From contig CAJVGD010000013.1 in NCBI GenBank assembly GCA_910890315.1, positions 620,001 through 684,000 of the forward strand: 64,000 nt of DNA, read 5' to 3'. The DNA is from Serendipita indica DSM 11827 (Eukaryota > Basidiomycota > Agaricomycetes > Sebacinales > Serendipitaceae). Shown piece by piece: positions 2,405-40,106 of this stretch. The first letter of the stretch is position 1. Each line of letters opens with the position of its first letter. Made by a program: the position numbers and the translations under genes. The notes below the pieces were generated by a model. That model was not told the DNA's origin. It did not search any database and saw only the letters and a program-made list of their open reading frames with translations.

Positions 2405-3243
2405 CTAGTACATCAGGAATGAAAGCGTCAGACACAACGCCACGGCCACCACGACACTCATCATCGAAAAGGCAGCGGCTCCCTGCGTCAAAACGACCCA
2501 ATAGAGAAAAGAGACAAATATAACAATACCTCCCCAGCTAAACGCCCACAGCATCGCATTCGAACATAAGTAAAACGGCGCTCGAAGCCCAAATTCTCGC
2601 AACCTCCGTAAACTCTTAGGACCTTCCAACAGCTCTTCAGGAAGTGGATTCCCGTGTATGACCCAGTCGTACAATGCCGTATGTCTCCGTCGTTCAGACG
2701 AATTGACGCTTTCCAGACGCCAGTGCTTAAGGACCAATTCACCGATTTGAGATTCAAGCGAAGCAGCCATATTGATGACTGCAACGGCAGATCCAGCGCA
2801 TCCCAGGTTGAGGATCACAGCGCTGTACATGAACCAGCGCAGCCCGCGCCAAGCAGAGAGAGAATGGCCTTGCAAGTCGCCGCCGCTAGCAAAGACAGCC
2901 GACTCGATGATCTGGTTGAGAGAGATTTGAACTGCGGCGAAGAGTGCAGACTAGGTATCGTCAGGAGAGCCATTCGCGTCGACGGCTTTGTAGATACACA
3001 TACCGTCACAGCAATCGTCTGGGCGAGTTTAATCCAAGACTTGATATCAGACTGGATTGCAGGTGGAAGTTCAGCTTTGGGACGAGTCAATGAAGGTGCA
3101 ATAAGGAGCAGTGAGCTCTTACCTTTGCTAGCTTTTTCCAAAACAACCTCCTTCAAGACAGTTCCAGCCCTTTGGCTTCCACTATTCTGTACGTTGGAAT
3201 CGTTTATACCATTTGGTTGACTTGAAGAGGGCGTCTGGGGCAT
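2405..3243 (-). CDS. Small membrane protein, locus 1 copy (TM1)
   Basis: This is a paralogous family with four copies in the window, function unknown. The N-terminal 40 residues are Ser/Gln-rich. A conserved core follows, including LPPAIQSDIKSWIKLAQTI. There are two membrane regions: one near WFMYSAVILNLGCAGSAVAV, and a C-terminal pair around FVSFLYWVVLTQG ending at SFLMY and the stop. A GTATGT intron at 2951-3003 joins AQTIAVT to SALFAAVQ. A second probable intron at 3075-3122 is exactly 48 nt and in frame, so the open frame reads through it whether or not it is spliced. Paralogues at 36 and 40 kb support splicing there. The gene lies directly downstream of the NACHT-WD40 gene on the same strand. 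No catalytic motif is visible. Confidence 0.75.
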
Positions 3244-3623
3244 AATTGATGGAGGTGAGACTGCTACACGAGAGGGAAGAGCGGTTAGAGTGAGAGAATT
3301 ACCCAGATTATTTGGTTCTTAGAGCTTTATATTATTGCCTCGAGGTGGACGCATGCCCTAATGCTGGCTGGTTAAGACAGTCTCCTGAGCCGTAAAGGCA
3401 GGATAGTTTGACCCGTAACGATTCCGATAGATATGAACCTTTCCCGAAGCACGCAGGACAGCCAATTTATTCAAACAATCCAGATGCCATCGCTCAAACT
3501 ACAATGGCTCTATGTATTCGCCGTAATGAATCTGAGAACAGTCTTCCTTCCATTCCATCCTGAGATTTTCCTACGTTATAGATGAAAGTAACGTGCATTT
3601 AAACTCATAAGCTTCGAATCAAA
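3244..3623. other. Spacer between membrane-protein and NACHT-WD40 genes
   Basis: No coding frame is supported here. The stretch should hold the promoter of the membrane-protein gene and the 3' end of the NACHT-WD40 gene. It is nearly identical to 17648-18027, which marks it as part of the recent duplication or conversion tract. Confidence 0.5.
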
Positions 3624-6600
3624 TCACTCCATTGCGTCTCCTCGAACCTTTGTCCAAGAGGTGCCACACTGAAAGTTGGTAAAGTCAATTTCGGTCGCTC
3701 GGAACGGGCTCCTTGTCGGCATCGTCAGAAGGTGTCGGTATTGAAGCCCATGCCGGTTATCCGGTGGCACCCAAAAGAGATGTTTGTCGGACGATTGCAC
3801 CCAACCATCGTGGGAAAGTGTGCACTTCTCGAATCCAGGTACGCGGATTCTAAGACGAGTTCCTAGTGATGGATCACCAGAACCTGACTCTGCAGGCTCG
3901 CTGTCCTGCTTGGAAGTGGTAATATGCGCAACTAGAAGATAGTCATCAACCACTCGTTCTCAATAAACCAGCCTATACTCACCGATATCCGCATCCCACA
4001 CTCGAATTGTCTTGTCACTCGAGCATGAAATAACATGCGACCCGTCGGGGGAGAATAAGACGGCATTGACGCATCCACTGTGGCCACGAAGTGCTCCCCC
4101 TAACAACTGACCAGTCGCCACATTCCAGTATCGAATGGTATTGTCGCTTGAGCCAGAGACAATTGTTGAGCCGTCTGGCGAGAATGCGATAGAGGTAACC
4201 GAATCCTCATGACCTCGAAGTGGTCCCCCCCATATTTGACCAGTCGTAGCATCCCACAGTCTAATTGTCCAGTCATCCGAGGCAGAAGCGAACCGTAATC
4301 CGTCTGTTGAGTATGCCACCGCATTTACCGATTCAAAGTGACCTCGAAGGGCATCCCCAATTGGATGACCAGTACCTACGTCCCAAATTCGGACGGTACA
4401 GTCAGTTGAGCCGGAGACGAGTCGCAGACCGTCTGGAGAAAACGCAACAGTCTTGAGCGGGCCATTATGACCCTGCGCCTCTCCCACTGGCTGACCGGTC
4501 ACTGCATCCCACACCCGAACGACACCTTCACTTGAACCAGATACAATTTTTGAGTCATCTGGTGAAAATGCGACGGTATTGACCGACTCAACATGACCCT
4601 GGAAAGGCTCTCCCAGAGATTTGCCCGTAATGGCATCCCATAGTCGCACTGACTTGTCATCTGAAGCAGAGACAACTCGCGAGCCATCTTGCGAAAATGC
4701 GACGGCTGTGACCACTCCACTGTGCCCTCGAAGAGGCCCTCCCAGATGCTTGCCACTTTGGACACTCCATAGGCGAAGTGTCCTGTCGTTTGATCCAGAG
4801 ATGATTCGGGAGCCGTCCGGCGAAATGGCGATGTCGTTGATCTGTTCTGTGTGACCAGGTATAAGCTCTCCTAATGGTTGACCACTATCCGGATCCCATA
4901 GTCGAATTGTCTCGTCATCAGATGCCGAGACAATTCGGGTGCCGTCTGGTGAGAATGCGACAGCGTTGATCCAGCTATCGTGCCCTCGAAGCGGTTCTCC
5001 TAACTGCTGGCTAGTGCCTACGTCCCATAGTTCAAGCGTACTGCCGCTCGACGCAGAGACGATTCGTAAACCGTCTGGCGAGAATGCAACGGCGGTAACC
5101 ACCCCATTATGCCCTAGCAGTGGCTCTCCGAGTGGCTGGCCAGTTTCAGCATCCCAGAGTCGAATCGTTTTATCATCTGATCCAGAGACAATTTTCGAGG
5201 CGTCTGGTGAGATTGCAACGTCATTGATCCGCTCCTCGTGACCTCGGATAGGCTCTCCCAAAGGCTGACCAGTTGCCGCGTCCCAAAGTCGAATTGTCTT
5301 GTCCCAAGATCCAGAGATGATTATTGAACCATCTGGCGAGAATTCAACAGCAGAAACTGAGTCTTTATGACCTTCAAGTGGTTTTCCAATGGGTTGGCCG
5401 GTATCCGCATCCCACAGCCGAATTGTCATGTCCCCCGACGCAGAGACCATCCGCGAGCCATCTGGAGAGAATGCGAGGTCGTTGACCCATCTTTTGTGAC
5501 CTCGAAGCGGCCTACCCAAAGGCTGACCACTGAACGCATCCCAGAGTCGTATTGTCTGATCATCCGAGGCGGAGCCAATCCGCGAACCGTCTGGTGAGAA
5601 TGTAACGGCAGAAATCGGTCCTTTGTGACCCTGGAGTGGTTCTCCCAATGGCTGGCCACTTTCTATATCCCACAGGCGAATCGCATTTCCACCTGTGTCA
5701 GAGGCAATATGCGAGCCATCCGGCGAGAACGCAAGCGCAGCCACTGAATATTTAAAGCCTCGGAGAGTCATCAGTAGCCCATGATGCCCTTCCTCGAGAC
5801 CCCGAGTCACTGCGAGGGTATGCTGGTAGCTGTTGAGACACTCTGTACGCAGTTTTGATGTTCCGGGAGTGAATGGAAGCGCAGAAATGTAAATATGTGG
5901 TATGCTTTCTTGGATGGGCACCAAGAATGCCATCATAAATCGACCAATATCGAAAATGCGATTCTTTGTCTCCTCCTTGATCTTTCAGTGGTATAAATTA
6001 TCAGAAAGGAAGAGAATGAAATACTCACACCTGTACGGCGCATCAAGGCTTGGAGCCCAGAAATCGCCCGCGAGACATCCGCTGTCACACTTAGAATCTC
6101 CATCCAGTATAAGACACGGGAACTCCTAATAATGCACCCGAACTCCTCTATTAGCTTTCCACTCCAGTTCCAGCCAGTGCCTGCGACGTGGAATGACCAA
6201 TGAGAGCTGGCGTATCGCAGCCTTCGTGGAATGAACTTTGCTACCCGGGCATCAAGGTCAGGGATCTGTCGATTTAGATAGAAAGATGACTCGATTTGAC
6301 ATATATTGAACTGGAGCCCTTCAGTTCTCGATGTGAGGCAGTTAAGACACCAAGACGCGACTTGACCATGCGCGTTGGCAACGTCGATATACACTTTGTT
6401 GGTACTGCCGACGTACGGGGGGACGGAGCAGCGTCGAAGGTATTCCAAAAAGGTTGGATGACGAAATTGTATCAGGTTTGTCCCCTCATCCGCAACAAGG
6501 ACGCTCCCTAGATTCTGCACCAAAGATCTGACACTTCCGCGTATACCATTATGCTTGAGAATATCGTCTAGATCATCAGGAGTAAATGGCTCGAATGCAG

Positions 6601-8309
6601 CAAGCAGCAGTGCGAGCATTTGAAACATCACCGCATGAAACTTCGGGTCTACGCGCTCAAAGATGAGATCGTATACATCGTCTATATCCCCTCTTTGATC
6701 CGTGGAAATGAGGCGATAATATATTTCCTCCGGAAGGTCCCAGCTTGTTTCACTTGTGAGCATTCGGCATGCAGTACTTCCCCAGATGAATAGCCCATTA
6801 GCCTTCGCAGCCAATTTCTGTATCTTATCCTCTGATAGTATTCCAGAAAGCGCTTGATGTATATAGGCCGCGACGTCGTCAACGTTATCCTTGTGAATGA
6901 TGTCGTGCAAACAGTCCTCCAGCTTGGCTTTGATGGAGAGTGGTCCCAGGACTAATTGAATGATACTGTCTGGCCGGCTTGTCATGAATATTTTGAGGTT
7001 TTTGGTGTTTCGAGCAGCCGTAGCCAGGGTCTCGACTAGTTCCCTTCGCTGTGGTGCGGACTTGCATTCATCGACAGCGTCGATGACAAGAATGACACAT
7101 CCTTGCCGATGACGAAGGGGACCAGAGATGAGTGTTTCAAACTGCTCCTCGAGTGAGGATCGCATGATATTGGGATGTCGCTTCACAGCATTAGCAATAT
7201 GTGGAGCAAGGTCGGGAATATTTTGGGCAAGCTCTCGTGCGATGGTAGAGCAAAACTTGTCTGTGGTTGATGCTTCGCTGGTTGCCATGGAGAAGAAGAA
7301 CTGGCATCCTAGGATACCTCGGTTTCGGCAGGAATCTATCACAGACATTGCAACTGTGGATTTTCCAGAGCCTCCTATGTCACAGAGCCAAAATATTGGC
7401 TTGTCTGAAGCGTTATCATCGGCCCAACGCCAGATTGTCTCAAGAACAGCCCGACGAGTGCCTGGAAGGCATGTCGTGTGGACTGAGTACTGTTCGAGCT
7501 CTACTATTGGCAGCTGGAATAGGGCAGCGGCGTCAAATTTGGACATTTCATCTTGGAATATTAAGCGGGCGTCACATGCTGGATTTGAACGTACCATCTT
7601 CCATAATTCGTAATGTTGACTTGGTAGGCACTTCTATGAACCGAGTTCGTAATATGATAAAAATTCTCAATTTCTCCTGCGCTTGTGGTCAACTTGTGAA
7701 TCAGGCTAGCAAAATATCGCACCATAAACCGGCTATGCCACTCCTCAATATCTTGATTAAGTTTGACGATCTGCCTCTTATCATCTTTTGTTCTATTGAA
7801 CACTTTGAAGACGCCGAGCTTGCTGTGACTCCATTTCTCCTTTAGGGTTGCAAATTCATCATAAATAGTCTCGAGAGACCTACGCCATTCAGCTTATTGG
7901 ATTGACTTGATCTGTTTACATACTTCAAATCTTGAACCAGCGACCGCTGGAATGACTCGTCAATCGCCGACTCATTTGAAGGATATGGCTCAAGCATGGT
8001 GATTTGCTCCTCAAGGACCAAGGTATATCTCTTCAGACGTTGAGCTAGCTCGACCCATTCTTCTTGCCTGATCTCCGTAGCCTGTCGTATTTATTAGGTC
8101 AGGCCGTACGAGTGTCCTCAACCCACCTGTATGACCTCGAGGATTGATTTCATTGTTCTACAAGCTGCCTTCAAAGGGGCAAGTACATCTGACCCTTCTT
8201 CTATCTTCGCTATTCCCGCCAGTAGGTCGAGACTGACAGGATTGTAAACTTGACTCTTGCTTGATGGGTTACGTGGTCCAGAGCTTTTTGGTGAATCAGA
8301 AGTCTTCAT
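3624..8309 (-). CDS. NACHT-WD40 NLR-type protein, locus 1 (NWD1)
   Basis: This is a STAND-type signalling ATPase: an N-terminal helical region, a NACHT domain, a WD40 array and a conserved tail. My exons are 8309-8127, 8081-7924, 7879-7723, 7676-7595, 7551-6029, 5981-3983 and 3931-3624. The NACHT domain shows Walker A GGSGKSTVA (GAGSGKST-like, with Gly for the usual Ala), Walker B VILVIDAVDEC and a sensor-type MTSRPD. The array has 14 blades of 43 residues with a GH-WD rhythm, which would suit two seven-blade propellers. The tail contains LFWVPPDNRHGL and QCGTSWT, shared with the other copies. The long NACHT frame appears to begin at 7597, but that Met lies inside a GTACGT intron. Upstream exons probably continue into the zinc-finger region at 8376-10237 as one protein. 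In related fungal NLRs the WD40 blades are thought to sense non-self ligands; the ligand here is unknown. Confidence 0.85.
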
Positions 8310-8345
8310 CTTCGTACATTGCGGTCACCGGCGATAGGATTTCAG

Positions 8346-10237
8346 TCATTTGCTATGGTCTAGAGTTCTGCTCACCAGTCGCAATCGCTTCCGAAAGCCC
8401 GACTTTGGACCGCTTCTCAACGAGTCCAATTTGTTGTCATTAGTCTCCGAAACCATGCCTTCTGTCGCTAGTCGTACAGATTCAACATCTGAGGCTCGGC
8501 CAGATAGCTCAGGTGTTTGAAATTTAGAAGGCTCTTCGGAAAATATCGTAGCAGCGGGTGTGTACTGATGAAGATTGGTGTTTGTGGGTGGATGCGCAGG
8601 GACGGATGAAGAGCGAGTCACCGAGTCCTCTAGACGTTTCTGACCCGAGTCGACTGGGCAGTAACTCTTCACGTGCTGGTCCATATTCTTCTCTCGAAGG
8701 CTCTTGCCGCTACCAAGGATGATGAGAGAATAATAGAGCGCAGAGGCATACGTACCACCCATCACACTTTGCGAGTGGCTCGGTCTTCCCTGTAATATGA
8801 TCAGAGAGGTCTTTGTGGGTGAAAAATCTTTGCGTGCTGCAGTAAACCCCTGTGAGTGAATCCGCCTGTGTAACTAATCATCGCACCAGTTAGGTTTCCC
8901 GCAATCCCCTGTACAGGTAACCGGCCTTTGCTCGAGATGATGTCGCATGTGGACCCTAGCGTGGTCCAGCCGCTTGTAGATGCTCGGGTTTGGTATTGAG
9001 CGCATGCAGAGAGTGCAAACAAGCGACAGATCGTCGGTGTGGTTTCCAGGTACCTTGGAGAAGAATCCTAGGAGTACTGATTCTCCTTCGATAGCCCCGG
9101 GAATTCGGGCTGCCTCCTCTGCAGAAAGAGTTCGTTCAGCTGTCTGCTGAAGGAACCAGTCCTCGGTTTGAATACGTTGAAGAAGCTGGAGACGTGGTAG
9201 ATCCCTTGGGTTAAGATATACGTCGGAGTGGACTTTCATTCTAGGCCAGCGCTTGCGTCCTGGATTGGTATTCTCGTCGTTGTGACTGTGAAGTATTTCA
9301 TCTGATTCGCTGTCCGTATTCCAGTTGACTTCTTCCCGGTCGGTCTGCGCCGGGTCGGTCGAACCCTCTGAAGGGGCAGGCGAACTAGGACGCTCTAGGG
9401 CTGGATTCAAAAGATGATTAAGTGCGTTTTATCTCTTTGTACCGGGTGTGACCTACGTTTATCAGAATGTGAAGTGACTTGTTGCCTGCATTGGAAGCAG
9501 ATCAGCTCTCTGCCTCGCGCGAATGGAAATGTGAACAAACGATGTCAATATGATCTGCATTCTTGATACATTTTTGTGCTCCTCGATATCAACCCAATCT
9601 GCAAACTTCATCTTTCGGAACGCTCGGCGTGAATCTTCGACCTTGCATGCTCCGGCAATTTTGAGAGCACAAAGGCCGTCGAAAATGTGATCTATTTTCT
9701 CTTGCTGTTCGGAGGGCTCGTATACGGCGACTTGATGACTGACAGCTTCGATACTCTTGCCGAGATCATTGATAAGGCTGTGTGAAGTAAACATTGAACT
9801 TTGTTTTCCGTGATATGACTTACCCAACAAGAACGTCTACCTGGCTGAGCAACAGATCCAGATTTGAGCCGCTTTCATCAACAGAGATTTCCTTGGCCAG
9901 GTGATATACGCAATGTTGAGAAGCGAGAGCGAGGTGATAGAGCTGGAGACCGAATAATGGTACTTTTTGCGACGCGCCGATGGCCCATTTAACATGCATC
10001 GCTGTGAGCCACAGGACAGGCGGGATGGGAGGAGGATTAGAGTTCCAGAACTAATTTTTGGTGAGCTGGATTGAAGGGATTCATACAAGGGCCACGTACC
10101 TTTTCTTTATTCACATTGGCTGAACGCAGAGCAAAGCGACGATTAGAGTGCAACTTCACTGATGGTGAGGACTCACTATCCCCAGGAGGTTTAGACTCTT
10201 GAACCGCCCTTGGGAGTACATTGACATCAGAGGACAT
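8346..10237 (-). CDS. Helical domain plus zinc-finger region upstream of NWD1 (probably same gene)
   Basis: Spliced exons start at MSSDVNVLPRAVQESK (10237). They continue through an all-helical region containing LYHLALASQHCVYHLAKE, then an acidic linker with EGSTDPAQTDREE, and then a cysteine-histidine region. That region has CTLC with two downstream His, then CTGDCGKPN joined to TQRFFTHKDLSDH, then CDG joined to CGKSLREKNMDQHVKSYC. Introns begin GTGCGA and GTACGT, and the joins complete the finger motifs, which supports the model. The last exon ends RKRLRL before a GTGAGC donor at 8375. Splicing to 8309 is in phase and would fuse this to the NACHT-WD40 gene. Read alone, the frame stops at 8346, leaving only 36 bp to the next start codon. 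The exon between the helical region and the linker is the least certain. Role inferred: N-terminal signalling or DNA/protein-binding arm of the NLR. Confidence 0.65.
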
Positions 10238-10336: not shown

Positions 10337-11538
10337 ATGCCGTCTTTTCAGGGTCCATTACAAGAGCTATTCCAGCGCGCATCAGCAAGACTAAGTAGAG
10401 CCACTGTCAAAAGTCGTGATCAGGCTGGCCTCCTGATTGAGAGGGCAAAGATCCTCGTTTTGGGCTCGGCAAACCCACCAATTGCCGCTTCAAGCCAAGC
10501 CATCTATGACCCAGCGGCACAATCGGCAATAAATCTGCTCAACACCACCGCTGATTCAATGGAGAACTCCGTCCCTCTAGACGTTCCCTCCAACCCTCGG
10601 ATGATCGCCGATGTTTTCACCCAGCAGACTCGGATACTCGATAGTGCTCACGAAAACATGCGTGGAAAGGTGATGACTTCACGTAAACTATTCCAAAAAG
10701 CTGACCACAGTCACCTTAGATGCCCCCAGGTACCAAGGACGCCACAGTTCTCAAGCAACAAGAGGCAGAATCCAAAGAGCACGATGAACAACGGTCTCTG
10801 CAAGCCCTTCAACAAGTCTCGCAGTCCTCTGTCGTCCGTTCCACCGCCGTGAGTCAAGCCGTGGCATTCGAACTCCTGGATATGGACAACCACGACGAGA
10901 AAAATGTAATCAAACTTGGTACGGATGAATACCTATACTCGGTAACCCTACTCATACAACGTTAAAAGAGCGCGACGTGTTCCCTAGTGGAATCGCCATA
11001 AGGCGCAGACTCGTGGAACTCTACGATGAAAAGTTTCCTGACAGATACTTTGCGTTCAAGCTCTGGTACGAGTTACCAAAGAGTCCGTGCGGCGTCAGCA
11101 GGCGGTTTTGGCAAATAGGAGAGCAATGTGGCGAAGTCCCAACCGAACATTCTCGCCTCTATTTCGTCAATGTCGCTTTACCAAGTGGACCTCCTGGTAC
11201 TCGGCAGTATACTGTCGTAACCGTGTGTCTAGACGAGCACGAGGAGCCATTTCCTGTCGGTGAGTCACTAGCTTCTTGCGGGTTGAGCATGAGCGACTGA
11301 GCGTCGACTCCAAGATTTGCCCGCGTCTGGTAACGTTCCGTGCTGCGACGGCTCGTGTCGGGATATTCATGAACATCTTAAACGAGTTTGGAGCTGTCGG
11401 CCATGGACTATCAAATCTATTCGACCGCTCGGAGCAAACGCCAAAGATTGGTCACTGACTAATAGACGCTTCAACGACGATACACTCGCACCAAACGAAA
11501 ATACACTCCTTGTCTTCGTTTCACCCAAGGTACTATGA
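10337..11538 (+). CDS. Divergent partner protein, locus 1
   Basis: I do not recognise this family. I read four exons: 10337 to about 10669, about 10733-10918, about 10970-11259 and about 11312-11538. The start MPSFQGPLQELFQ is preferred to upstream Mets because MPS-Q is kept in locus 2 and the locus 2b relic. The first part is helical, with LLIERAKIL and QQTRILDSAHENMRG. The second has an aliphatic-acidic motif ending VIKLG. The third holds a conserved block, KLWYELPKSPCGVSRRFWQI, followed by QYTVVTV. The last exon has CCDGSC, a Trp-rich segment and NENTLLVFVSP at the end. No signal peptide, membrane helix or known catalytic motif is visible. The gene sits head-to-head with the NLR gene in every locus. 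Confidence 0.65.
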
Positions 11539-12776: not shown

Positions 12777-13933
12777 TTAAGACTCAAATTCAGGGCGGAG
12801 GTGCAGGTTGGAGGCGTCCAGCGGCCTGCTTTCCTTAACGAAGTTGTATGATGGGTCCTTCGTCGTAGATTTCATATGGAGTTTCATATGGCGCGTCTTG
12901 TTCTGCACTGTGCAACGGCGTCCGCTATGGGTGCATCAGCCATCAACGAGTGTACCGTCTCAGAAGATACGCACCACACATCGCACTTGAGACCTTGGGC
13001 ATTCAACTTCCGAATCCTCCCAAATTCTCTTTTGGTCGTCTCATTGGAGAATCGGCCGTCAGGATGCCAGTTGAAGTGTCGGCGAATATGTCCAAAGGTA
13101 CGGGGTAGCGAAGAATCGCCCTGCCAGGGTTCGCCTAACGCTTCACATATCTTGCAACGATTTTTCTTTCCTAGGATGATAAACAGGGCGAAAAGGCTGA
13201 TGCTCGTTTCACTGGAGGGCATATTCCTGAGCCTCTCCTTGTATTTGTCCAGAACTTGCTCCTTCTGTTGACTTTGAAACCAAGGAGCTGCTAAAATGTC
13301 TCTCACAAGATCCTGATCGTCCGGTGAAAGAACTTGCATGATGCGGATGATGTCTTCGCTTTCCAGAGTGAGTGGTGAATCCACAATTGTCAACTTGGCC
13401 TGTAACGCAGCGCTGTGTTCGCTCTCTATATCAAGTCTCGCACCCTCGTCCGTGGATACACTCCGGTCATCTTCTTCCTTCTCAGTCTGCGCTGGGTCGC
13501 TTGAACCTTCTGACTGGGGAGGGGAATCAGCCGAATCTAGTACTAGGTTCATCCGTTTTGAAGCGGTGGATTTAGTCTCTTCTAGTGCGCGTGACGTGTA
13601 CTCAGCAGAGTATGGTGTCTGTTGGCGCCTGCGTCAACCGTAGATCAGCTCGCTATCTCAACCAACGGAAAAGATAAAACAGACTCCATCAACGTGAGCT
13701 TGTCGTGGGACGTGTTCCTGCGTTCGTAACCATTAATCCAATCCGCCTGCTGGATTTGTTTATGAGCAGCTTGAAAGGGCAAATAAGGCAACATACCTTC
13801 TCTTCATTCGCTAGAACCGGAATATTCTTAATGGGACATGGCAGCCGTCGTGGACATTCAGCAAATACTCACCATCCTCAGGAGCTTTGGACTCTGGGCC
13901 CGCGCGTACAGGTATACAGTCGTCAAAAGACAT
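12777..13933 (-). CDS. Finger-only paralogue without NACHT or WD40 (locus 1b)
   Basis: This is a shortened relative of the upstream half of the NLR genes. The start MSFDDCIPVRAGPESK at 13933 matches the start exon of loci 1 and 2. The helical exons are missing: the sequence jumps from the first exons to the exon just before the acidic linker. The linker EGSSDPAQTEKEED follows, then CKICEALGEPWQGD with two His about 20 residues on. After a GTGCGT intron the sequence completes CDVCGRRCTVQNKTRHMKLH, a good C2H2 arrangement, and ends RPEFES with a stop at 12777. The chain ends where the other copies continue into NACHT. The 5' splice joins are inferred from paralogues. It could be a decoy, a regulator or a decaying remnant. 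Confidence 0.6.
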
Positions 13934-13999
13934 GAATAGACCTGCGCGGGTTGCGCTATTCCTCGAGTAGGTTTCGCAGTCGGCGCCAATCGATTTGGG

Positions 14000-17647: not shown

Positions 17648-18027
17648 AATTGATAGAGGTAAGGCTGTACACGAGAAGACAGAGGGGCGAGGTGTGAGAG
17701 AATTACCCAGATGATTTGTTTCTGAGAGCTTTATATTATCGCCTCGAGGTGGACGCATGCCCTAATGCTGGCTCGTTAAGACAGTCTCCTGAGCCGCAAA
17801 GGCAGGATAGTTTGACCCGTAACGATTCCGATAGGTATGAACCTTTCCCGAAGCACGCAGGACAGCCAATTTATTCAAACAATCCAGATGCCATCGCTCA
17901 AACTACAATGGCTCTATGTATTCGCCGTAATGAATCTGAGAACAGTCTTCCTTCCATTCCATCCTGAGATTTTCCTACGTTACAGATGAAAGTAACGTGC
18001 ATTTAAACTCATAAGCTTCGAATCAAA

Positions 18028-26294: not shown

Positions 26295-26296
26295 TG

Positions 26297-28003: not shown

Positions 28004-31000
28004 TCACTCGGTTGCATCTCCTCGAATCTTCGTCCAAGATGGCCCACATTGGAACTTAGTGAAATCGAGTCTAATTGGGAGAAATGGGCCCCAAGTCGAT
28101 ATTGTCGAAACATTAGGATGCTGTAGTCCTTGGCGATAGTTGGGGGGTACCCAGAAGATGATTTGATCGGCAGATTTTACCCAGCCGTTGTGCACAAGGT
28201 AACATTGTCCAAGTCCAGGTATGGTGATCCGTAAAGGGATGCCCGAATTAGTCTCCTTGGGACCTTTTTTGGTGATGTTCGTGTCGGCAAGCTGTCTACC
28301 CTCCTTATTTCCATTGCCTGTGTCTAAAGCTTGCACAAGACTGTAAGTTGCTAATGATATGAGACCGATAAGGTGCTACTGACCTATCTGTTCATCCCAC
28401 TGTCCAGATATCTGGTCGTTTGACCACAGAGAAATGGCGGAGACTGGATAGTTGTAACGCTCTTCCAGTTGTTGACCAGTTCTCGCATCCCATATTCGCA
28501 CCGTCTCGTCGCCGGAGCTAGAGATGATCCGTGAGCCATCGGAAGAGAATACCACAGTATCAATTCCACTTTCATGCCCTCGCAATGGCTGTCCCAATGG
28601 CCGTCCGGTCTGTACATCCCAAAGACGCACAGTCCTATCATATGAACCGGAAACTATTTGGGAGCCATCCGGTGAGAAAGCGACAGCAGAAACCGAGCTT
28701 TCGTGACCCCTCAGTGGTTCTCCAGTGAGTTGACCATTCTCGACATCCCAAATCCGGATCGTATTGTCCCTCGAGCCAGAAGCTATGAGAGATCCATCTA
28801 AAGAGAATGCGACGGCTTCAACCCAGCCTTCGTGCCCTTCTAGTGGTGCTCCTGATATTTGGCCAGTTTCTAAGTCCCATATTCGTATAGTCCTGTCTTC
28901 CGATCCAGATACGATTCTAGAACCGTCTGAGGAGAATGCGACGGCCAGAACAGAACCTTTGTGGCCTCGAAGTAAGTCTCCCAATGGTTTGCTGGTTTCT
29001 GCGTCCCATAATCGCAGGCTACCGTCAGCCGAGCCAGAGACGATTCGAGAGTTCTTCAGCGAGAATGCGACACTGTTGACCAGGTCGTTGTGGCCTTGAA
29101 GTGGATCTCCTAACGGCTGACCAGTCACTAAATCCCAGAGTCGAATTGTCCCATCTCCTGAACCAGAAACAATCCGTGATCTCTCTGGGGAAATTGTGAC
29201 GGCAAACACTGAGTCTTTGTGACCTTGAAGTGGCTGTCCTAATAATTCACCAGTTTCCGCTTCCCATAGTCGGATGGTAGTGTCTTCCGAACCAGAGATG
29301 ATTTGAGAGCCGTCTAGAGAAAATGAGACAGTATTTATCCAACCTTCATGCCCCCGGAGTGGCTCTTCCAATGAAAAGCCAGTTTCTGCGTCCCATAGTC
29401 GAACTGTCTCATCGGCTGAGCCAGAAATAATTTGGGAGCCATCCGGCGAAAATGCGACAGCCAGGACTGAGTCTTCGTGCCCTCGAAGTGGGCTCCCCAG
29501 TGGCTGACCAGTTCCAGCATCCCATAATCGCATTGTCTGGTCGTCTGAGCCGGAGACGATTCGCGATCCATCTGGCGATAACGCAAGGGCGCAGATTGCC
29601 CCTCCGTGACCTAGAAGTGGCACTCCCACTGGCTGGCCACTCTCTGCATCCCACAGCCGGATTGTATTATCACTGGAGCCAGAGATAATTCGAGAGCTGT
29701 CCGGGTAGAAAGCGACTGCGTTGACCGAGTTGACATGACCTCGAAGTGGCTCCCCCAATCCCTGTCCAGTGTCCGCGTCCCATAGTCGCAAGGTGTTATC
29801 ATTTGACCCAGAGACGATCCGTAAGTTGTCCGGTGAGAACGCTATAGCGGTAACTGAGGATTTATGTCCTTGGATTTGCTCGCCCAGTGGCTGGCCCGTG
29901 TCGGCGTCCCACACTCGAATCGTGTTATCCGAGGACCCAGAGGCAATCCGTGAACCATCTGAAGAGATTGCGAGAGCGTATATACCACCTTTGTGACCGC
30001 GAAGGATTGTTGGGAGCACGGGGTACGTGTCCCTAAGCCCACGACTCACAACCAGGACCTCGTCGCAATTCTTCAGACTTTCAACACGCAGTTGTGATTC
30101 GGTTGGGGTGAACGGAAGTGCTGAAATATAGATGTGTGGGGCACTCTGTTGTATTGGCAGTGAGAACTCCATCATAAATCGGTGAATGTCGAGAATGCGA
30201 CGTCTAGTCCTCATTTCAAGCTATTATTTGCATCAGCGATCAGAGTGCGCTAAATAAATAAAAAACTTACCTCCCCGTGGAGTGTCAAGGCTCGAAGACC
30301 AGAGATTGCTCGTGCCACTCCGCCTGTTACGCTCAGAATTTCCATCCAATACAAAACATATGGACTTCTGACGATATGTCGAACTTTATATTTTAAAGCT
30401 TTTTGCCAGTCGCTGTTGGTTTTGGCCATATGGTGCAACCAGTGGGAACTGGCATATCGAAGCTTCCTGGGAATAAACCTCGACACTCGAGCCGCGAGAT
30501 CGGGGACTTGCTGATTCAGATAAAAGGAGGACTCAATTTCACATATGTTGAACTTGAGCCCTTCCACCCTTGATGTGAGGTTTTTGAAGCACCACGATGC
30601 AATTTGACCATGTGCATTGGCGATATCGATGTATATTTCGTCACGAGAGTGTGTTTGAGTGATGGGAGACTGTCGAAGGTATTCTACCAGGGTAGGATGA
30701 CAGAAATGAATTAGACTTGTAGTGCTATCCGCGGCAATTATCCCTCCCAAAGCATTTATTAATGCTATGGCACTCCCGCCAACTCCAATATGCCCCATGA
30801 GATCGTCCAAATCGTCGGTGGTGAGCGGTTCAAAGACCGCAGCTATAACAGAGAGCATATTCCACATATTTGTGTGGTACTTTGGCTCTATGCGCCAGAA
30901 TATGCTGTTATACACCTTGCCTATATCTTCAGTCTCGCCTCCTGTGATCAAGCGATCATATAATCTCTGGGGATTTTCCAACATCTTTTCGTCTTTAAGC

Positions 31001-32575
31001 ATTCGGCATGCACTGCTTGCCCAAATAAACCATCCCGACGCCTTTGTGATGAGGTGTTGTCTCTTTTCTTGCGACAGAACTCCATCCAGCGACTGGTGCA
31101 CATAAACTGCAATATCATTGATATTATCACGATGATTCGTGCCATGGAGGCGGTTCTCCAGCTTTCTCCTGATTGAAATTGGTTTCAAGACTGCTTCGAT
31201 GACAGTGTCTGGCCGACTCGTGATAAATATCTTGAGGTTCATAGTTTCTTGAGCGGCTGCAGAAAGGGTCTCGAGAAGTTCCTTTCTCTGTGATCCAGAC
31301 TTGCATTCATCAACAGCATCGATGACAAGAATTACTGGCCTCTTTCGATATTGTAGTGGACCAGAGACCAGCGTCCGAAACTGATCATTTAATGGTCTTC
31401 GCATGATGGAAGGGTTCCTTTTTAAAGCTGTGGCGATGTGTGGAGCAAGTTCGGGAATGTTATGTGCAAGGTCTCTCGCAATGGTGGAGCAAAACTTGTC
31501 AGTGGTTGATCCTTCGCTGGTCGTAAAACAGAAGAAGAAATGACCTCCTAAGAGTCCACTTTCTCGCCAAATTTCCACCATGGACATGGCAACTGTGGAT
31601 TTTCCAGACCCTGCTATATCAGAGAGCCAGAATATTGGCCTTTGTGGCAGGTCATCCTCCGCCCAACGACAAAGAATTCGAAGTACAGTCTGACGCGTTC
31701 CCGGTAAACAGGTACGGTGCATTGAGGATGCCACAGATGCCACTATGGGTAGCTGAATCATGGTCAAAGCGTCAACTTGAGGCGATTAGTGGGCTTCTTG
31801 TATTAAGTACTTTAGCTCACCTTCTGTCAGGATAGCCTTTGTATGCTGCTCAACAACTTGAATGCGAAATGCGGCGAACATGGTTAATGCCTCCTACTCT
31901 CTGTGTGAGATTAAAATACAAACAGGGATGTTCGTACCATGAATTGCCTGTGTCGGTCCTCAATATCGCGGTTGAATTTTCGGATGGAGCCTGCGTCAAC
32001 CTTTGTTTTACTTAATGAAGTAAGCGCGCCAAGGCGACTCCGTTTATGCCTATAATGGGCAACCGTGCCGTGAAATTGCTCCAAGAGCCTATGTATATAA
32101 GCATATTGAACCAAATCAGGATTTTGACGTACTCCACATAACGAATGAGCGGTTGGCTAAAAGCCTGGTGCACAACCCTCTCCTCCTGAGGATACGATTC
32201 GAACGTAGTAATTGTGCTCTCAACAGAGGACATATATTCTTCTAAACGCTGCGCTAGGTCTGCCCATTCCTCTTGGTTGTCGTCGGCGGCCTCTCGTAGT
32301 CAGAAAATGATGTGATGCCCGCTTTATAGACTCACTTGAATGACATCGAGGATTGATCTTGTTGCCCGGGCAGCTGCCTTGAGGGGAGAAAGTATATCTG
32401 ATGCTTCGGCCAGGTTTGCCAAAGTATCAAGCTGGCTCGCAGCCGTAATGTGCGCTTTCCCCTTCCCTTGTGACGAGCTTTCTGCGACAGTCGAACCCCT
32501 GGATGGATCTAGGTCCATAACCCTGGGCGTATAAGGGGGAACGTCCTGGGGTTGGTTAATGGTTGGCCATTGCAT
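28004..32575 (-). CDS. NACHT-WD40 NLR-type protein, locus 3 (NWD3)
   Basis: Third and most diverged NLR. Exons: tail 28350-28004, WD40 30220-28384, NACHT 31775-30271, and short helical exons in 31.8-32.58 kb. Walker A is AGSGKSTVA, Walker B VILVIDAVDEC, sensor FITSRPD. Twelve complete 43-residue blades are followed by a thirteenth that has lost its middle and retains only an edge (YNYPVSAISLW). This differs from the 14 blades of the other two. The tail keeps IIFWVPPNYRQGL and QCGPSWT. The start shown is the first Met of the helical exon; in-phase splicing (GTGAGC donor at 32589) suggests continuation to the upstream finger region. It has no membrane-protein gene directly downstream, unlike loci 1 and 2. 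Confidence 0.8.
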
Positions 32576-32589
32576 CAGCTTACGCTCAC

Positions 32590-33915
32590 TAATTCCTCAT
32601 TGGAAATCATAGTAGATCCAACTGGATTTAACTTTTCTTCCATCGCAATTTTCGCATTCTGAAGCCCAAGTTCAAAGCCCGCATGTTGCACACTCAAACT
32701 GGTGGTCTGGGTGCCAAATGGTCCCGCCGATGATGTACTATGGGCCAAGTCTTCATGGAAGCTTATGTTTGGTCGTGAGCTTATACTGTTCAGACCACCC
32801 TAGGTAAATAACTGACCCCATTCGGCAGCTCCTCATGTGTCGCTCCATATTCCTCTGTCGGAGACGTCTGCCACTAATTGAAGGTGAGATTTGTTTAATA
32901 AAGGAGGGGAATTTCACTTGCCACCATTCACAATTGATCATTGATTCGGCTCGGAATTTTGACCGAAATTTTGACCAGCCTGTGCCTTCCGGAGATTTGT
33001 CCTGGTCGTCTTGTATGCCAGCGCCCTCACTGGTTTTCATAGAACCAGCTAAGCTACTTTTAACACCTTCCTGTTCGCCTTGCATGGGGTCGACTGTACC
33101 TCCGGGAGGAGGTATATCACCCGGTAAACTCGATGGATTTACAACGATTAATGAGGCATCTCTCGATCTGTATCGAAAGTAAATAAGCACTACGGGCACA
33201 AACAAGAAAAGCGAATAACCGGATATCCTTATGAAGATATTTGTTGGCAGTGCTTGTAGTGGGCTCTTGAATGCCCTGTAATTGTGACTTGGTCTGTTCA
33301 AGAAACATATTGTCCGAATCTCTCAAGGAGTTAAACAAGGCACAAGAATTTCGCACTTCGGATGAACCTCCATGAACCATATCGCAGAGCCGTTTGAACA
33401 GCAGGTCGAGTGTATCTTGATAAGTTGGAACGTCATTCATGTCGGTGATGTGTACGACGCCTTTGACACAGTCCTCCCAGTCGACGAGAAGGCTGATTCA
33501 GGCGACTTGTTAGTGCTAATCAGAAAGAAAAATTAGTCTCACTCGCTGAAGCACTCTATTTTTCCATCGGAATCCAGGATGATGAGCTCGTCCACATCGA
33601 ATTCCTTTGCTAAATGATAGAGGGTATGACGCATAGCGAGATTGATATGAAGCATTTGCATAATAAGGAATTTCGAATTGCGAAAGGAATGATCCAGCCA
33701 TTCGATGCGCCGAAGAAATGGTTGGAGAAAGGGTGAGATATGCGGTGGATTTGTTACCCAGAACTTGAGAGTTGACTGAGCAATCAGAGAGCACTATACG
33801 ACTCTTCTTACCGTCTCTTCGTTCACTTGATGGGAACGGATCAGTATAAGTCTCATGCCGATAAGTAACTCTTACTGTGGGACGTGGTAAGGCGAAATGA
33901 CTTGCGATGATCCAT
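32590..33915 (-). CDS. Helical plus zinc-finger region upstream of NWD3 (probably same gene)
   Basis: Putative exon 1 is MDHRKSFRLTTSHS (33915). A helical exon follows that contains HTLYHLAKEFDVDEL, the same signature as loci 1 and 2, then a second helical exon with DTLDLLFKRLCDMVHGG. The linker has PGGTVDPMQGEQE. Only one finger remains: CEW, then a GC-AG intron (32874-32921), then CGRRLRQRNMERHMRSC. The earlier C2H2 unit is absent. An open frame here reads a hydrophobic stretch (ISGYSLFLFVPVVLIYF), but a probable intron covers it, so I do not claim a membrane helix. The final exon ends MISNEEL at a GTGAGC donor, in phase with NWD3. Confidence 0.55.
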
Positions 33916-33990: not shown

Positions 33991-35086
33991 ATGGACCAAA
34001 CAAATAATCGGCGCACCTTCAACCCACATCCAATGCCGCGTCAGGGCAGCAAGATATGGAAGACTATCAAGGAACTTGGGGGGGATATAGTGGGGATAAG
34101 ATCACAATTAAAGGTCTTTCTGCACGAAGCTGACAATGTGGCCGACTCCAAGGGAAAAGTCGACTCTGAGGCAAAAGTTGACAATATCACTCAAGAAGTC
34201 GACAGGATGTTCTTAGCTGCAAGTAGCAACGATGAGCGAAAAGAGGCGATCAAAGCTGGCCACAACCGGCTTCTTGAATTGGTGGTAGGCTAGTCAACCG
34301 TTCATGTATCCTCACCCTCAAATGAAATATGTACATCGTCAGGATCAGCCAATGCTTAATGATCTTCAAGCGAAGATGTCGCGGGCCGAAGAGAGGGACG
34401 ACAAAGAACTCTGCCGCACAATAGCTGCAGGATCATTTGATTCCAACCCAAAAGCCAACTTGGGTCCTATCGAACTTCGATCCATGGACGATCATGATCT
34501 AGACCCCATAGAGATTGGTCCGTGCGCGAGGTACTTTGGGATGATCCTAATTCGCTATAGATCTTAAAATATACCCTCATCTCGAAGATATTCGTTATCA
34601 AGTTTGGTCCAAATCCTGTTCAGGAGTACCATGCGATCTTCGGTTCTGGAACGAATTGTCACATTGTGGTCAATTCTCACTTAAATGGGAGCTTGCGCGC
34701 CATCAGGGAATGAATGGGCTCATAGATCCTGGCGTACGTCGTCTCTGGTATGTCGACGCCGGGTTAAGGTCAAAGGAGTATACGGTTGTGACCGTGCGCA
34801 CAGAAGCGGAAATTCCATTTGCAATTGGTGCGTCATAATTTCTTTGCAAGGCTGCAACTGATCATCGGTGCCAGACGTGGAGAAATCATGGAGCTCCTGC
34901 TGCGATAAAAAGTGCCTCAACATAGAAGCGCATCTTAACAACTTGTGGAAGTCACGAGGATGGGTGGTTCGCAACGTGTTACTCGTACAGAATGAGGGTC
35001 CAGTGTCCAAGGAGGCCCATTTCAATTCAGCAAATGCCCTTCCGAACGAAAACTGGCTATACGTCATTATTAAGACAACAATATAA
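33991..35086 (+). CDS. Divergent partner protein, locus 3
   Basis: This is a diverged partner paralogue. It begins MDQTNNRRTFNPHPMPR, or possibly at the internal MPR. A helical first exon follows, then LRSMDDHDLDPIEIG, then an exon with KSCSGVPCDLRFWNEL and EYTVVTV that aligns with the conserved block of loci 1 and 2. The last exon has SCCDKKCLNIEAHL and ends NENWLYVIIKTTI. Frame changes between exons are resolved by short introns. It starts 76 bp from the minus-strand gene, so the head-to-head arrangement is kept in spite of divergence. Confidence 0.6.
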
Positions 35087-35266: not shown

Positions 35267-36146
35267 CTAGTACAGTAAGAAAGAGAGTGTTAGACTAAGA
35301 CCCAATGCGACGGCCACTGCTATCAGAGCGATGGCAGCCTTGACCTGGGTGAGTGCCACCCAGTACAGAAAAGTGAGAAAGATAAACACTCCGCCGACGA
35401 TAAAAGTGAGTGTCATGGACCAAGTAATAAACCCAAAGGACTTTCCAATCCCAAATCTTTGTAATCTCCGTATGTCGGCCTTGTGATCAAAGAACTCGTC
35501 CGTCAGTTTTTCCGTCGCTACCCACGTATATACGGCTTCATATCTCTTGGCCTTTTCTGTCTCCCGCTTGCTCTTTTTCTTGTGCTCGCTGTTCTCTTGC
35601 CGGCTCCTCTCTGCAGCCTCACCAGCTATGCGACGGCGATAATACTTGGTGGCCATATAACCGATATCGCATTCCAGAGATGCCGCCATATTGATCACCG
35701 CGACTGCAGAGCCAGCGCACCCCAGGTTGACAATCACCGCGCCATACATAAACCAGCGTAGCCCATGCCATACGGGTAGTGGGTATCCTTGAGACTGTCG
35801 CCACCGCCAGACATAGCAGACTCGATGATTTGGTTCAACGAAATTTGCACGCCGGCGAATAATGCCGACTAAGAGGTGTCAGTTCTCCGAAGATATCAAC
35901 GCCGCTCAGAGTTACGAACCGTCACGGCGACAGTCTGTGCTAGGGCGATCCAAGAGTCGACGTCTGACTTGATAGCAGTCGGTAGTTTAGCTGGAACATA
36001 CGTCAGTCCTGCTTCTGGTGACTGGGACGGAGTGGCAGACCGTTGATTGCTTTAGTAGAGAGAGTCTCCTTGTCTATGAGTGGCGGTCCTTCAGTAGAAG
36101 GTGATTGCCCTTGTTCCGCCTGGCTATGGGAAGCAGCAAGCGACAT
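35267..36146 (-). CDS. Small membrane protein, locus 3/4 copy (TM3), with a frameshift
   Basis: Paralogue of TM1 with start MSLAASHSQAEQGQSPSTEG, core LPTAIKSD and membrane segments GAVIVNLGCAGSAVAVINMA and FIFLTFLYWVALTQV. Relative to TM1 and TM4 it has an insertion rich in Arg, Lys and Glu after the first membrane segment (near RRRIAGEAAERSRQENSEHK). Around 35797-35805, between GGGDSLKD and YPLPVWHGLRWF, the frame is one base off and no intron explains it. The copy is therefore probably broken, or carries an assembly error. It lies behind the locus 3 partner gene. Confidence 0.65.
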
Positions 36147-38144: not shown

Positions 38145-39081
38145 ATGTCAGACGCAGAGGGCGCTGAGCAGCTAATTCGAGCTGTTGAAGATGGTAATAA
38201 CCAACTAGCAGAGGTATTAAGCTATCTCGTCCCACATGAACCTTCTGACAACTATCGAATAGATATCCCGACAGGATAATCAAACCCTTGAGGCTTCCAC
38301 TGAAGAAGAACGACGAGCCAGAGAATTGGATGAGACTGAACTGGACCGTACTCGGTCATTACACGCAAGCTTGTCAAAACATCTTGACCCCAGACCGCAA
38401 GCTGAGACATGATGTATATCTCCACTCTATAGATAACCAGCTTCTTGAGCCAGTGCAGATCGGTTTGTGGACAAGATCTTTCGTCACAATTCTGACTTTC
38501 CGTAGATAGAAAAAGATTCCCCCACTTTCAATTGCTTCGCCATCATATTTCAGAGGTATTCACCAACTGTTGTCCGGACCGACCTTGGGACTTCCACTTG
38601 TGGGATGAAGTATCGCGGTCGCATAACCCGCCTTCATTTCTATGGCGACTTCGTAGCACACAAGGGTTCAGTGGAAACATAGCTGGAAGTGGCTGTCGTA
38701 TCTGGTTTGCCAACATTGCATTAAAGGACGGTCCGCCCAACAGTATGAGGCAGTATACAGTTGCCACGATATCCAAAGATGAAAACGACTTCGAAGAAGC
38801 GTTTGCAATTGGTAGGGTTGATACATTCTCCGAAGCTGCGTTAACAAGGTCTTTTAGATTTGCAAGGTCCAAAGAGCCCCTGTTGTGACAAGGAGTGTTC
38901 GAACATAAAAGCACATCTGAATGGAATATGGAAATCGTGGAAAGTTCTCAATGTATGGATTCTGGATGAGGACTGGCCCCCACAGCCTGCGTCTTCCACG
39001 CTCGCATTCGACTCGGAAAATCTTTCTGCAAATGCAAACAGTCTCTACGTTCATATCATGTCAGATGATCGTCCAAATTGA
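38145..39081 (+). CDS. Divergent partner protein, locus 4
   Basis: This is a partner paralogue. Helical exon MSDAEGAEQLIRAVEDGN comes first, then an acidic exon with EASTEEERRARELDE, then LHSIDNQLLEPVQIG, then HLWDEVSRSHNPPSFLWRLR and QYTVATI, matching the conserved central block. The last exon contains SPCCDKECSNIKAHLNGIWK and ends ANSLYVHIMSDD. The junction near 38400 needs a small intron or an indel that I could not place. It retains the C-terminal cysteine motif well. The nearest minus-strand start is 137 bp away. Confidence 0.55.
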
Positions 39082-39218
39082 CGCGAGGAGTGGGTCTAAC
39101 TCTCTTTATACCTTCAAACCTGAACGTACAGCATGATGGTTAGTTTATCGTTTAAACATTGACGGCTACAGAATGAGAGGACGCATGTATTCGAACAATT
39201 TCCCTATCACCAAATAAG

Positions 39219-40106
39219 CTAGTATAGTAAGAAAGAGAGTGTCAATCCGAGAGCCAAAGCGACGGCCACCGCCATTAGAGCGATGGCAGCCTTGACCTGG
39301 GTGAGGGCCACCCAATAAAGAAAAGTAAGAAAGATGAACGCTCCGCCGACAATAAACGTGAACGTCATCGACCAAGTGATCCACCCAAACGACTTTCCAA
39401 TCCCAAATTGTTGTAATCTCCGTATGTCGGCCTTGTGATTAAAGAAATCGCCCGTCAGTTTGTTCGTTGCGACCCACTCATATACTGCCTTGTACCTCTC
39501 CGCCTCTTGTCTCCTTTTTGTCTCTTGCCTATTTGTTGGCGCTGGCGCCGTGAGCTGACGATAATACTTGGTGGCCATATAACCGATGTCACACTCTAGA
39601 GATGCCGCCATATTGATCACAGCGACAGCAGAGCCAGCGCATCCCAAGTTGATGATGACCGCGCTGTACATAAACCAACGTAGCCCACGCCAGACCGGTA
39701 CTGGGTGAGCATGAAGGTCGCCGCCGCTATCAGAAATGGCGGATTCAATGAGTTGGTTCAACGAGATTTGAACGGCGGCAAATAGTGCCGACTGGAAAGG
39801 TGTCAGCCCAAAAAGGCCGAGAGTACACCCAATGTTACGAACCGTTACTGCAATAGTCTGCGCTAGAGCAATCCAAGATTTAACGTCTGACTTGATAGGA
39901 TTCGGTAATTTAGCTGAAATGTTCGTCAATCGTCCTCCATCAATGACTGGCACGGCGTGGCGGACCGTCGATTGCTTTAGTAAAGAGATCGTCATTTTTT
40001 TTTGAGGCTTCAGCTTCTGTAGAAGATGGACGTCCCTGTTCCACATGGCTAGGAGAAGCGGGCGGTGCTGCTGCTGCTGCTGCTGCTGCGACGACATTGT
40101 AAACAC
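39219..40106 (-). CDS. Small membrane protein, locus 4 copy (TM4)
   Basis: One frame covers the whole gene and ends SFLLY. Membrane segments match the other copies (WFMYSAVIINLGCAGSAVAV and FIFLTFLYWVALTQV). The single long frame needs two putative introns to be read through. The one at about 39846 (51 nt) is in frame either way. The one ending at 39913 (52 nt) is not. Upstream of it the homologous amino acids (SHVEQGRPSSTEA) lie in a different frame from the one that starts at the Met. A CAG run directly after the start explains how the frames came apart. The true N-terminus is unresolved. Confidence 0.65.
   Translation of the reverse strand: MFTMSSQQQQQQQHRPLLLAMWNRDVHLLQKLKPQKKMTISLLKQSTVRHAVPVIDGGRLTNISAKLPNPIKSDVKSWIALAQTIAVTVRNIGCTLGLFGLTPFQSALFAAVQISLNQLIESAISDSGGDLHAHPVPVWRGLRWFMYSAVIINLGCAGSAVAVINMAASLECDIGYMATKYYRQLTAPAPTNRQETKRRQEAERYKAVYEWVATNKLTGDFFNHKADIRRLQQFGIGKSFGWITWSMTFTFIVGGAFIFLTFLYWVALTQVKAAIALMAVAVALALGLTLSFLLY
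40066..40089. repeat. CAG/CTG trinucleotide repeat
   Basis: Seven to eight uninterrupted units lie immediately after the TM4 start codon, giving poly-Gln, poly-Ala or poly-Ser depending on frame. Confidence 0.9.

What the first reader, a model, noticed from the sequence alone, without database searches (positions are those of the whole stretch)
2405..40106. Repeated head-to-head NLR-partner module with a membrane-protein gene
At loci 1, 2 and 3 a minus-strand finger-NACHT-WD40 gene faces a plus-strand partner gene of one unknown family. The start codons are only 75-100 bp apart, and a small membrane-protein gene of one family lies nearby. Loci 1b, 2b and 4 are partial or decayed versions of the same arrangement. 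Seen directly: pairing, spacing and paralogy. Inference: the genes act together, as paired NLRs do in plants. The partner family does not match anything I recognise.
Basis: partly seen in the sequence, partly recalled or inferred. Interest (0 to 1): 0.85.

Follow-up and report, generated by a model that had tools for sequence, protein, structure and literature searches.

The report
Fungal gene pair with swappable sensors
In the genome of what is probably a root-dwelling fungus, genes of an unknown family sit back to back with genes that mostly start with one particular unknown domain, while the rest of the second gene has been exchanged between immune-receptor and enzyme types, which suggests a two-part alarm unit that can be plugged into different sensors.

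Summary
The pairing is real and reaches beyond the window, but the conserved unit is not 'NLR plus partner'. In the window's own genome (probably Serendipita/Piriformospora indica) the partner's C-terminal domain occurs at 11 places. Eight copies read full length, three of them in the window, and all eight have a divergently transcribed neighbour (a fragment at one). In six, that neighbour starts with one 150-aa helical "companion" domain; neither companion nor partner has a Pfam match above cut-off. What follows the companion varies: NACHT-WD40 (four), a STAND-like ATPase with TPRs (one), a PARP-type ADP-ribosyltransferase (one). One NACHT body is 92.5% identical in DNA to a NACHT gene with another N-terminus, the match starting at the NACHT exon; the PARP body has close kin without the companion. 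So bodies are exchanged while companion and partner stay together. Finger and membrane gene are not part of the core. Most likely mechanism (inferred): the body senses, companion domains cluster and engage the neighbouring partner, as in fungal nwd2/het-S-type units, though no shared motif was detected. Plant paired NLRs are a poor analogy: the partner has no NOD domain. Function is untested; other fungal genomes could not be searched.

The parts
3624..10237 (-). Locus 1 companion-domain NLR: exons 1-2, companion domain (10050-9573), finger region (about 9400-8376), helical linker, NACHT exon (7551-6029), WD40 exon with 14 repeats (5981-3983), C-terminal exon
   Evidence: gene model, first two exons by hand; Pfam; companion alignment
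10337..11538 (+). Locus 1 partner gene, 4 exons (10337-10669, 10720-10918, 10969-11259, 11315-11538), 348 aa, exon edges set by hand
   Evidence: DNA read; open frame; no Pfam match
2405..3318 (-). Locus 1 membrane-family gene (C-terminal part clear; frame interrupted)
12887..13633 (-). Locus 1b finger-type ORF, no companion domain and no NACHT
   Evidence: no Pfam match
13971..15404 (+). Locus 1b partner, decayed (stops and frame breaks)
18028..24613 (-). Locus 2 companion-domain NLR, 15 exons; companion domain 24435-23956
   Evidence: Pfam
24705..25887 (+). Locus 2 partner gene
   Evidence: open frame
16809..17761 (-). Locus 2 membrane-family gene (frame interrupted)
26638..27102 (+). Locus 2b: broken copy of the N-terminal part of the locus 1 partner (81% DNA identity)
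28004..33856 (-). Locus 3 companion-domain NLR (companion 33763-33285; NACHT exon 31775-30271; WD40 exon 30220-28384); start codon uncertain
   Evidence: companion HMM
34033..35086 (+). Locus 3 partner gene (alternative starts 33960, 33963, 33991)
35267..35878 (-). Membrane-family gene beyond the locus 3 partner
38249..39081 (+). Locus 4 partner, C-terminal half readable; no companion found beside it
39222..40097 (-). Locus 4 membrane-family gene, longest open copy (292 aa from a Met, several hydrophobic segments)
46524..48464 (+). Gene model with the partner's N-terminal helical domain ahead of a protein kinase domain (tentative)
   Evidence: Pfam Pkinase E=2e-29

Best explanation
A two-gene signalling unit. 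Gene A carries an N-terminal helical companion domain followed by an exchangeable body, usually an NLR (NACHT-WD40, or a STAND-like ATPase with TPRs), once a PARP-type enzyme. Gene B, the partner (a probably helical N-terminal segment, a short acidic motif with consensus MDDHxxxPI, and a C-terminal domain with CC-x3-C-x5-H in all seven aligned copies), is transcribed divergently from it. Shown: the pairing, the homology, open frames under purifying selection between loci 1 and 2, and exchange of bodies. Inferred: the NLR body oligomerises on a ligand, clusters companion domains, and these recruit or activate the partner made by the neighbouring gene, which carries out the response, probably regulated cell death or non-self rejection. 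It would work like nwd2/het-S, PNT1/HELLP or gasdermin/protease two-gene clusters of ascomycetes.
For: Three protein queries and an HMM scan of the held loci find the companion domain at seven places; six face a full-length partner head to head, and the seventh (C10) keeps only 48 bases of the pair's start region. The three paired copies outside the window are diverged: companion 26-47% identical to locus 2, partner 38-53% to locus 1, so linkage has outlasted long divergence. Body exchange: the C40 NACHT groups at 100/99 support with a NACHT gene that gave no companion hit; the two are 92.5% identical in DNA from the NACHT exon on, with no significant companion or partner match upstream of that gene. 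PARP bodies at C5:588k and C8:14k match at 87-88% in their best exons with no companion hit there. Companion and partner distances over six pairs correlate, r=0.87, 5 of 720 permutations as high. dN/dS between loci 1 and 2: 0.20 companion, 0.35 partner. Companion modelled as a helical bundle, pLDDT 84. Fungal precedents: PMC3321046, PMC12881547 (passages).
Against: No expression, interaction or phenotype data. Common descent of one ancestral pair explains much of the linkage and of the correlated distances. No homology between companion and partner was detected, unlike the shared amyloid motif of nwd2/het-S. Partner fold unresolved (pLDDT 52); no match to a known executor. Locus 4 and a second tandem copy at C2 are partners without a companion of their own. 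The C14 and C2 neighbours are not provably companion domains. The C13 (PARP) gene model needed a forced start, and its partner's full-length frame was not the top-scoring path in most settings.
Confidence: 0.5

Rival explanations
1. The partner is a brake, guardee or antidote: it binds and silences the companion protein (or is watched by it), and loss or modification of the partner releases that protein. This would be a guard or toxin-antidote pair rather than receptor and executor.
For: Tight divergent linkage and co-inheritance fit this equally well; a PARP-type enzyme as one body could be an effector that needs restraint; partners without a companion exist (locus 4, C2) while the one companion copy without a partner body, C10, was not shown to be a complete gene.
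Against: Most bodies are sensor-type NLRs. The companion domain takes the N-terminal place where fungal NLRs carry signalling domains (PMC4986451, passages). No toxicity data.
Confidence: 0.25
2. No joint function: one ancestral divergent gene pair was copied as a block, and a shared promoter in a compact genome keeps the halves together.
For: Loci 1 and 2 are largely one segmental duplication. NLR loci here recombine heavily. Short divergent spacing may be common in a 25 Mb genome; its background rate was not measured.
Against: The two genes stay together while the downstream body is exchanged and at companion identities near 26%; both are under purifying selection between loci 1 and 2.
Confidence: 0.2
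3. Plant-type sensor/helper NLR pair.
For: Head-to-head orientation and close start codons.
Against: The partner has no NOD and no repeat domain, and the neighbour is not always an NLR.
Confidence: 0.03

Closest known systems
nwd2/het-S and related STAND-effector gene pairs (HET-S, HELLP/PNT1, sesA/sesB) of ascomycetes
   Same: Two adjacent genes, one an NLR with a distinctive N-terminal element, the other a smaller separate protein; divergent in P. anserina; the repeats of the NLR vary (WD, TPR, ankyrin) (PMC3321046, passages)
   Different: There the two products share a short amyloid-type motif and gene orientation varies between species. Here no homology between companion and partner was detected, all eight full-length partner copies have a divergent neighbour, and neither domain matches a Pfam model above cut-off
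Fungal gasdermin / protease-receptor two-gene clusters (HET-Q type)
   Same: A constant activator domain joined to varied sensor bodies, beside its separate target gene (PMC12881547, passages)
   Different: No protease domain and no gasdermin match in Pfam here
Plant head-to-head paired NLRs
   Same: Divergent, closely spaced gene pair
   Different: Both members are NLRs in plants; the partner here is not. Head-to-head NLR pairs are rare in Sordariales (13 of 225 two-NLR clusters; PMC12258605, passages)
Swapping of N-terminal domains on near-identical NODs in fungal NLRs (Dyrka et al. 2014, PMC4986451)
   Same: Near-identical NACHT body under two different N-termini (C40 locus against C40:168k)
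   Different: Here the N-terminal piece stays linked to a whole neighbouring gene, and the body need not be an NLR

Membership tests
Fungal NLR (NACHT-WD40 class) | NACHT or NPHP3_N ATPase with P-loop plus C-terminal repeats | tested here: met
   Loci 1-3 and C40: open frames with NACHT and WD40 repeats; Pfam WD40 was run on locus 1 only, the others read by eye
Fungal NLR-executor two-gene cluster | NLR gene adjacent to a smaller separate partner gene, conserved over copies | tested here: met
   Five NLR-type loci in one genome (loci 1-3, C40, C5); other species not available
Fungal NLR-executor two-gene cluster | Shared signalling (amyloid) motif between NLR N-terminus and partner | tested here: not met
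   Profile comparison E 0.68 (partner C-terminal domain) and 0.14 (partner N-terminal domain) against the companion; short low-complexity motifs would escape this test
Fungal NLR-executor two-gene cluster | Partner is a known death-inducing domain (HeLo, HeLo-like, gasdermin, SesB, patatin) | tested here: inconclusive
   No Pfam match above cut-off (the C14 copy gave one weak GNAT hit, E 0.045); remote homology is not excluded, partner model pLDDT 52
Fungal NLR-executor two-gene cluster | Activation of the NLR triggers the partner and cell death | not testable with these tools
   needs experiments
Plant paired NLRs | Both members are NLRs | tested here: not met
   Partner: no Pfam domain at E<=5 in three copies
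NB-ARC/STAND-TPR (body at C5:1628-1631k) | Nucleotide-binding STAND ATPase plus TPR repeats | tested here: inconclusive
   TPR_12 E 2.9e-28, above cut-off; ATPase only below cut-off (nSTAND_NTPase5 E 1.2e-5, AAA_16 2.6e-5), P-loop GSPGSGKT read by eye
PARP-type ADP-ribosyltransferase (body at C13:513-514k) | PARP catalytic domain above the Pfam cut-off | tested here: met
   PF00644 E=1.7e-6, 28.1 bits against cut-off 26.7. Open frame from companion to PARP at three intron penalties with a forced start at the companion exon; earlier runs gave no path through that exon, and middle exons and start codon are uncertain
dsRNA-binding domain (body at C14) | Match to a dsRBD profile or structure | tested here: not met
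   by-eye resemblance only; no Pfam or PDB support

The most novel reading that the evidence does not exclude
A mobile 'sensor socket': a cassette of partner gene, divergent promoter and companion-domain exons moves as one piece and is spliced in front of different bodies (NACHT-WD40 more than once, STAND/TPR, PARP, perhaps others), giving each new sensor or enzyme a ready-made downstream partner. It would be a new way for a fungus with a very large NLR repertoire to rewire immunity or allorecognition, built on two protein families without assigned function.
Probability: 0.4. Interest if true: 0.78.

Novelty: new variant of a known kind. Interest (0 to 1): 0.62.

Why it matters
For P. indica a 2014 survey counted 274 NLR candidates, the most of any fungus in that set, and only about 15% of basidiomycete NLRs had an annotated N-terminal domain (PMC4986451, passages). 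A 2022 survey found virtually no basidiomycete NLR amyloid-like motif co-localised with a matching effector motif (PMC9815663, passages). This unit would give one class of basidiomycete NLRs a concrete, linked candidate downstream partner in a root symbiont, and so makes the question 'what do these receptors signal to?' directly testable. The exchange of bodies behind a constant domain-plus-partner is also a natural experiment on modularity.

Tried and rejected
Plant-like NLR pair: rejected, the partner has no NOD. Membrane gene as a third component: rejected as core; with one query its family has no hit at the C40, C5:1.63M, C13:510k, C14 or C2 pair loci, and its recurrence in the window goes with duplication. 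Finger as core: rejected; it is absent from the C40, C5 and C13 gene models, and a 52%-identical finger stands without a companion hit at C1:2391k.

Beta-grasp (ubiquitin-like) reading of the partner C-terminus: by eye only; the model was poor (pLDDT 52). dsRNA-binding body at C14: by eye only, not supported. SesB/alpha-beta-hydrolase reading of the N-terminus of the C40:168k gene: by eye only, no Pfam match. C14 and C2 neighbours as companion relatives: not shown (profile E 0.05, probability 1%), although the two resemble each other (52%) and the C14 partner is a clear relative (E 1.3e-11). C15:396k companion-like gene with C2H2-like fingers: weak (HMM E 0.013, where a reversed-sequence control gave 0.027; hhalign E 1.8e-4, probability 48%). 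It has no partner hit in the 10 kb held and would be an exception to the rule if real.

The chance calculation ignores common descent and is not used; that call also used a mistyped C13 start, corrected. One search used wrong exon edges for the locus 1 partner and is replaced. The NACHT row looks out of frame and is dropped; one search covers that region (dN/dS 0.28). One search also gave 1.33 for the short helical linker (192 codons, dS 0.14), not followed up, and stopped at the last segment because dS was zero there. Companion fold: best Foldseek E 0.3, none at E<=0.001; best sequence-profile match in the PDB a helical protein at E 0.043; the model contains 18 intron residues read as protein.
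Full report
Setting. The window is part of contig C13 of a 24.7 Mb genome in 55 contigs. Eighteen exact matches to the back-translated C-terminal RSIDELD-stop motif, none to the reversed pattern, a motif reported for 25 proteins of Piriformospora (Serendipita) indica with a genome near 25 Mb (PMC3192844, passages), make that fungus the likely source; this is inference. In the NACHT search 91 places were scored out of 218 candidates, all 91 over the cut-off.

The observation. At window loci 1, 2 and 3 a minus-strand gene and a plus-strand partner face each other. A splice-aware model joins the N-terminus, NACHT and WD40 in one open frame at loci 2 and 3; at locus 1 the first two exons were set by hand and the frame checked, the other 13 exons matching locus 2. 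Loci 1 and 2 share a duplicated block of 82.7% identity that ends at 10053/24438, at the start of the companion exon. The nearest DNA relatives of the locus 1 partner inside the window are the broken copies 2b (81% over 478 columns, N-terminal part) and 1b (75.5% over 445 columns, C-terminal part), not the locus 2 partner (67.6% over 663 columns, C-terminal part). So even between sister loci the partner has a history of its own.

The two protein families. The N-terminal 150 residues of gene A (an exon beginning FWNSxPPxIPP, then a second exon) form the companion domain. Six further copies are 26-61% identical to the locus 2 copy. No copy tested has a Pfam match above cut-off (for locus 2, C40 and C5, with a few weak sub-threshold hits; for C13 and locus 3, none at E<=10). 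It is modelled as a helical bundle (pLDDT 84, pTM 0.80) without a significant PDB match. The partner is about 300-350 aa, four exons at loci 1-3 and C40, three at C5: a probably helical N-terminal part, an acidic motif, and a C-terminal domain with seventeen invariant columns in seven copies, among them C122, C123, C127 and H133. The more distant C2 copy has one residue more between the cysteines. Three partners have no Pfam match at E<=5, and the profile found nothing in the PDB at E<=10.

Genome-wide test. Partner queries found the C-terminal domain at loci 1, 1b, 2, 3 and 4, C40:2226k, C13:510k, C5:1632k, C14:189k and two tandem copies at C2:1471-1473k: eleven places. Two more places, 2b and 46.5 kb, hold only the N-terminal part. 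Eight copies read full length: loci 1, 2, 3, C40, C5, C14, one C2 copy, and C13 (for C13 the full-length path was the best one in one of eight settings). Companion queries found loci 1, 2, 3, C40, C5, C13:512k and C10:490k (one search missed locus 3); a C15:396k candidate seen later is at noise level. Six of these seven companion copies face a full-length partner divergently, with 99, 91, 176, 106, 151 and 475 bases between predicted start codons (the C13 start was set by hand). The seventh, C10, keeps the companion exons and 48 bases of the start region but no partner body; its downstream gene was not modelled. At C14 a clear partner relative also faces a divergent gene, 357 bases away, whose first part is not provably a companion. 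At C2 a fragment 52% like that C14 neighbour lies divergently upstream of the partner copies. Exceptions: locus 4 and the second C2 copy have no companion of their own, and the possible C15 gene has no partner. The searches take single proteins, exon by exon, so counts are lower bounds.

Bodies. Loci 1-3 and C40: NACHT-WD40. C5: a P-loop STAND/AAA-like ATPase, below Pfam cut-offs (best nSTAND_NTPase5 E 1.2e-5), plus TPR_12 (E 2.9e-28). C13:512k: cysteine pairs that look zinc-binding (by eye) and a PARP domain; the frame from companion to PARP stays open at three intron penalties when started at the companion exon, but earlier runs gave no path through that exon and the middle exons are uncertain. 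In a tree of 39 NACHT rows (48 sequences before identical ones were removed; 40 NACHT stretches were fetched, not all 91) the C40 NACHT pairs with C40:168k at 100/99. The four companion NACHTs do not form one clade: the tree needs four changes of the label, starred branches force at least two, and all 500 shuffles were as low; much of the tree is unresolved. DNA identity between the two genes is 92.5% over 1195 columns, from C40:2228777, 15 bases inside the NACHT exon, to the end of the fetched stretch, with no significant companion or partner match upstream of the other gene. The C13 PARP body has relatives at 87-88% in the best exons at C5:588k and C8:14k, where no companion hit was found. 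Direction of transfer is unknown.

Selection and co-inheritance. Between loci 1 and 2 dN/dS is 0.20 for the companion (144 codons) and 0.35 for the partner (333 codons). Companion and partner distance matrices over six pairs correlate at r=0.87; 5 of 720 relabelings reach this. This fits co-inheritance and does not by itself show interaction.

Partner N-terminus elsewhere. At 46.5 kb the partner's N-terminal domain (this copy as query: E 1.5e-16 at C40, 1.5e-9 at locus 1) precedes a protein kinase domain in a modest-scoring gene model. If right, this domain works with more than one C-terminal part.

How it probably works. By established knowledge NLR bodies oligomerise on ligand and their N-terminal domains signal. 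In several fungal systems the target is the product of the neighbouring gene (PMC3321046, PMC12881547, passages). The companion domain is in the signalling position, and the partner is the gene that stays with it when the body changes. I therefore favour companion-to-partner signalling, with guard or antidote as the main rival. No step of this was tested.

Known or new. Literature searches showed, among the rows listed, no paper that describes this pair. Only listings, abstract beginnings and passages of six papers were read, and the library lacks most subscription journals. Paired NLR-partner genes and N-terminal swapping are known in fungi. New here are two unassigned protein families, a constant divergent orientation, a basidiomycete host (inferred), absence of a detected shared motif, and bodies that include a non-NLR enzyme.

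Noticed in passing
window 40581-46165: Two tandem genes with kinase-like exons; the first carries a DUF6699 domain (Pfam E 1.1e-16) and the second is its paralogue. A third, shortened relative at 46.5-48.5 kb carries the partner's N-terminal domain in front of its kinase.
   Followed up: partly
window 3627-3959 and 18031-18363: The C-terminal NLR exons of loci 1 and 2 translate identically although synonymous divergence elsewhere in the genes runs from about 0.14 to 1.1, which suggests recent patchy gene conversion.
   Followed up: partly
C40:165.8-169.5 kb (L068, L062): A NACHT gene with another N-terminal region (by eye alpha/beta-hydrolase or SesB-like) has a NACHT part 92.5% identical in DNA to that of the C40 companion NLR.
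   Followed up: yes
C15:396453-399090 (L016): A gene with a possible distant companion domain and two C2H2-like fingers lies directly upstream of a distant member of the window's membrane-protein family.
   Followed up: partly
C2:1473794-1475515 (L069): The same protein-level string appears in opposite orientation on both sides of the companion-like fragment, as if an inverted repeat or mobile element had inserted there.
   Followed up: no
window 26395-26640: Read by eye, an insertion of about 245 bases separates the start region from the body of the decayed 2b partner.
   Followed up: no
window 57105-61366: Long overlapping open frames in a GC-rich stretch (up to 59% GC per kb), not examined.
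   Followed up: no
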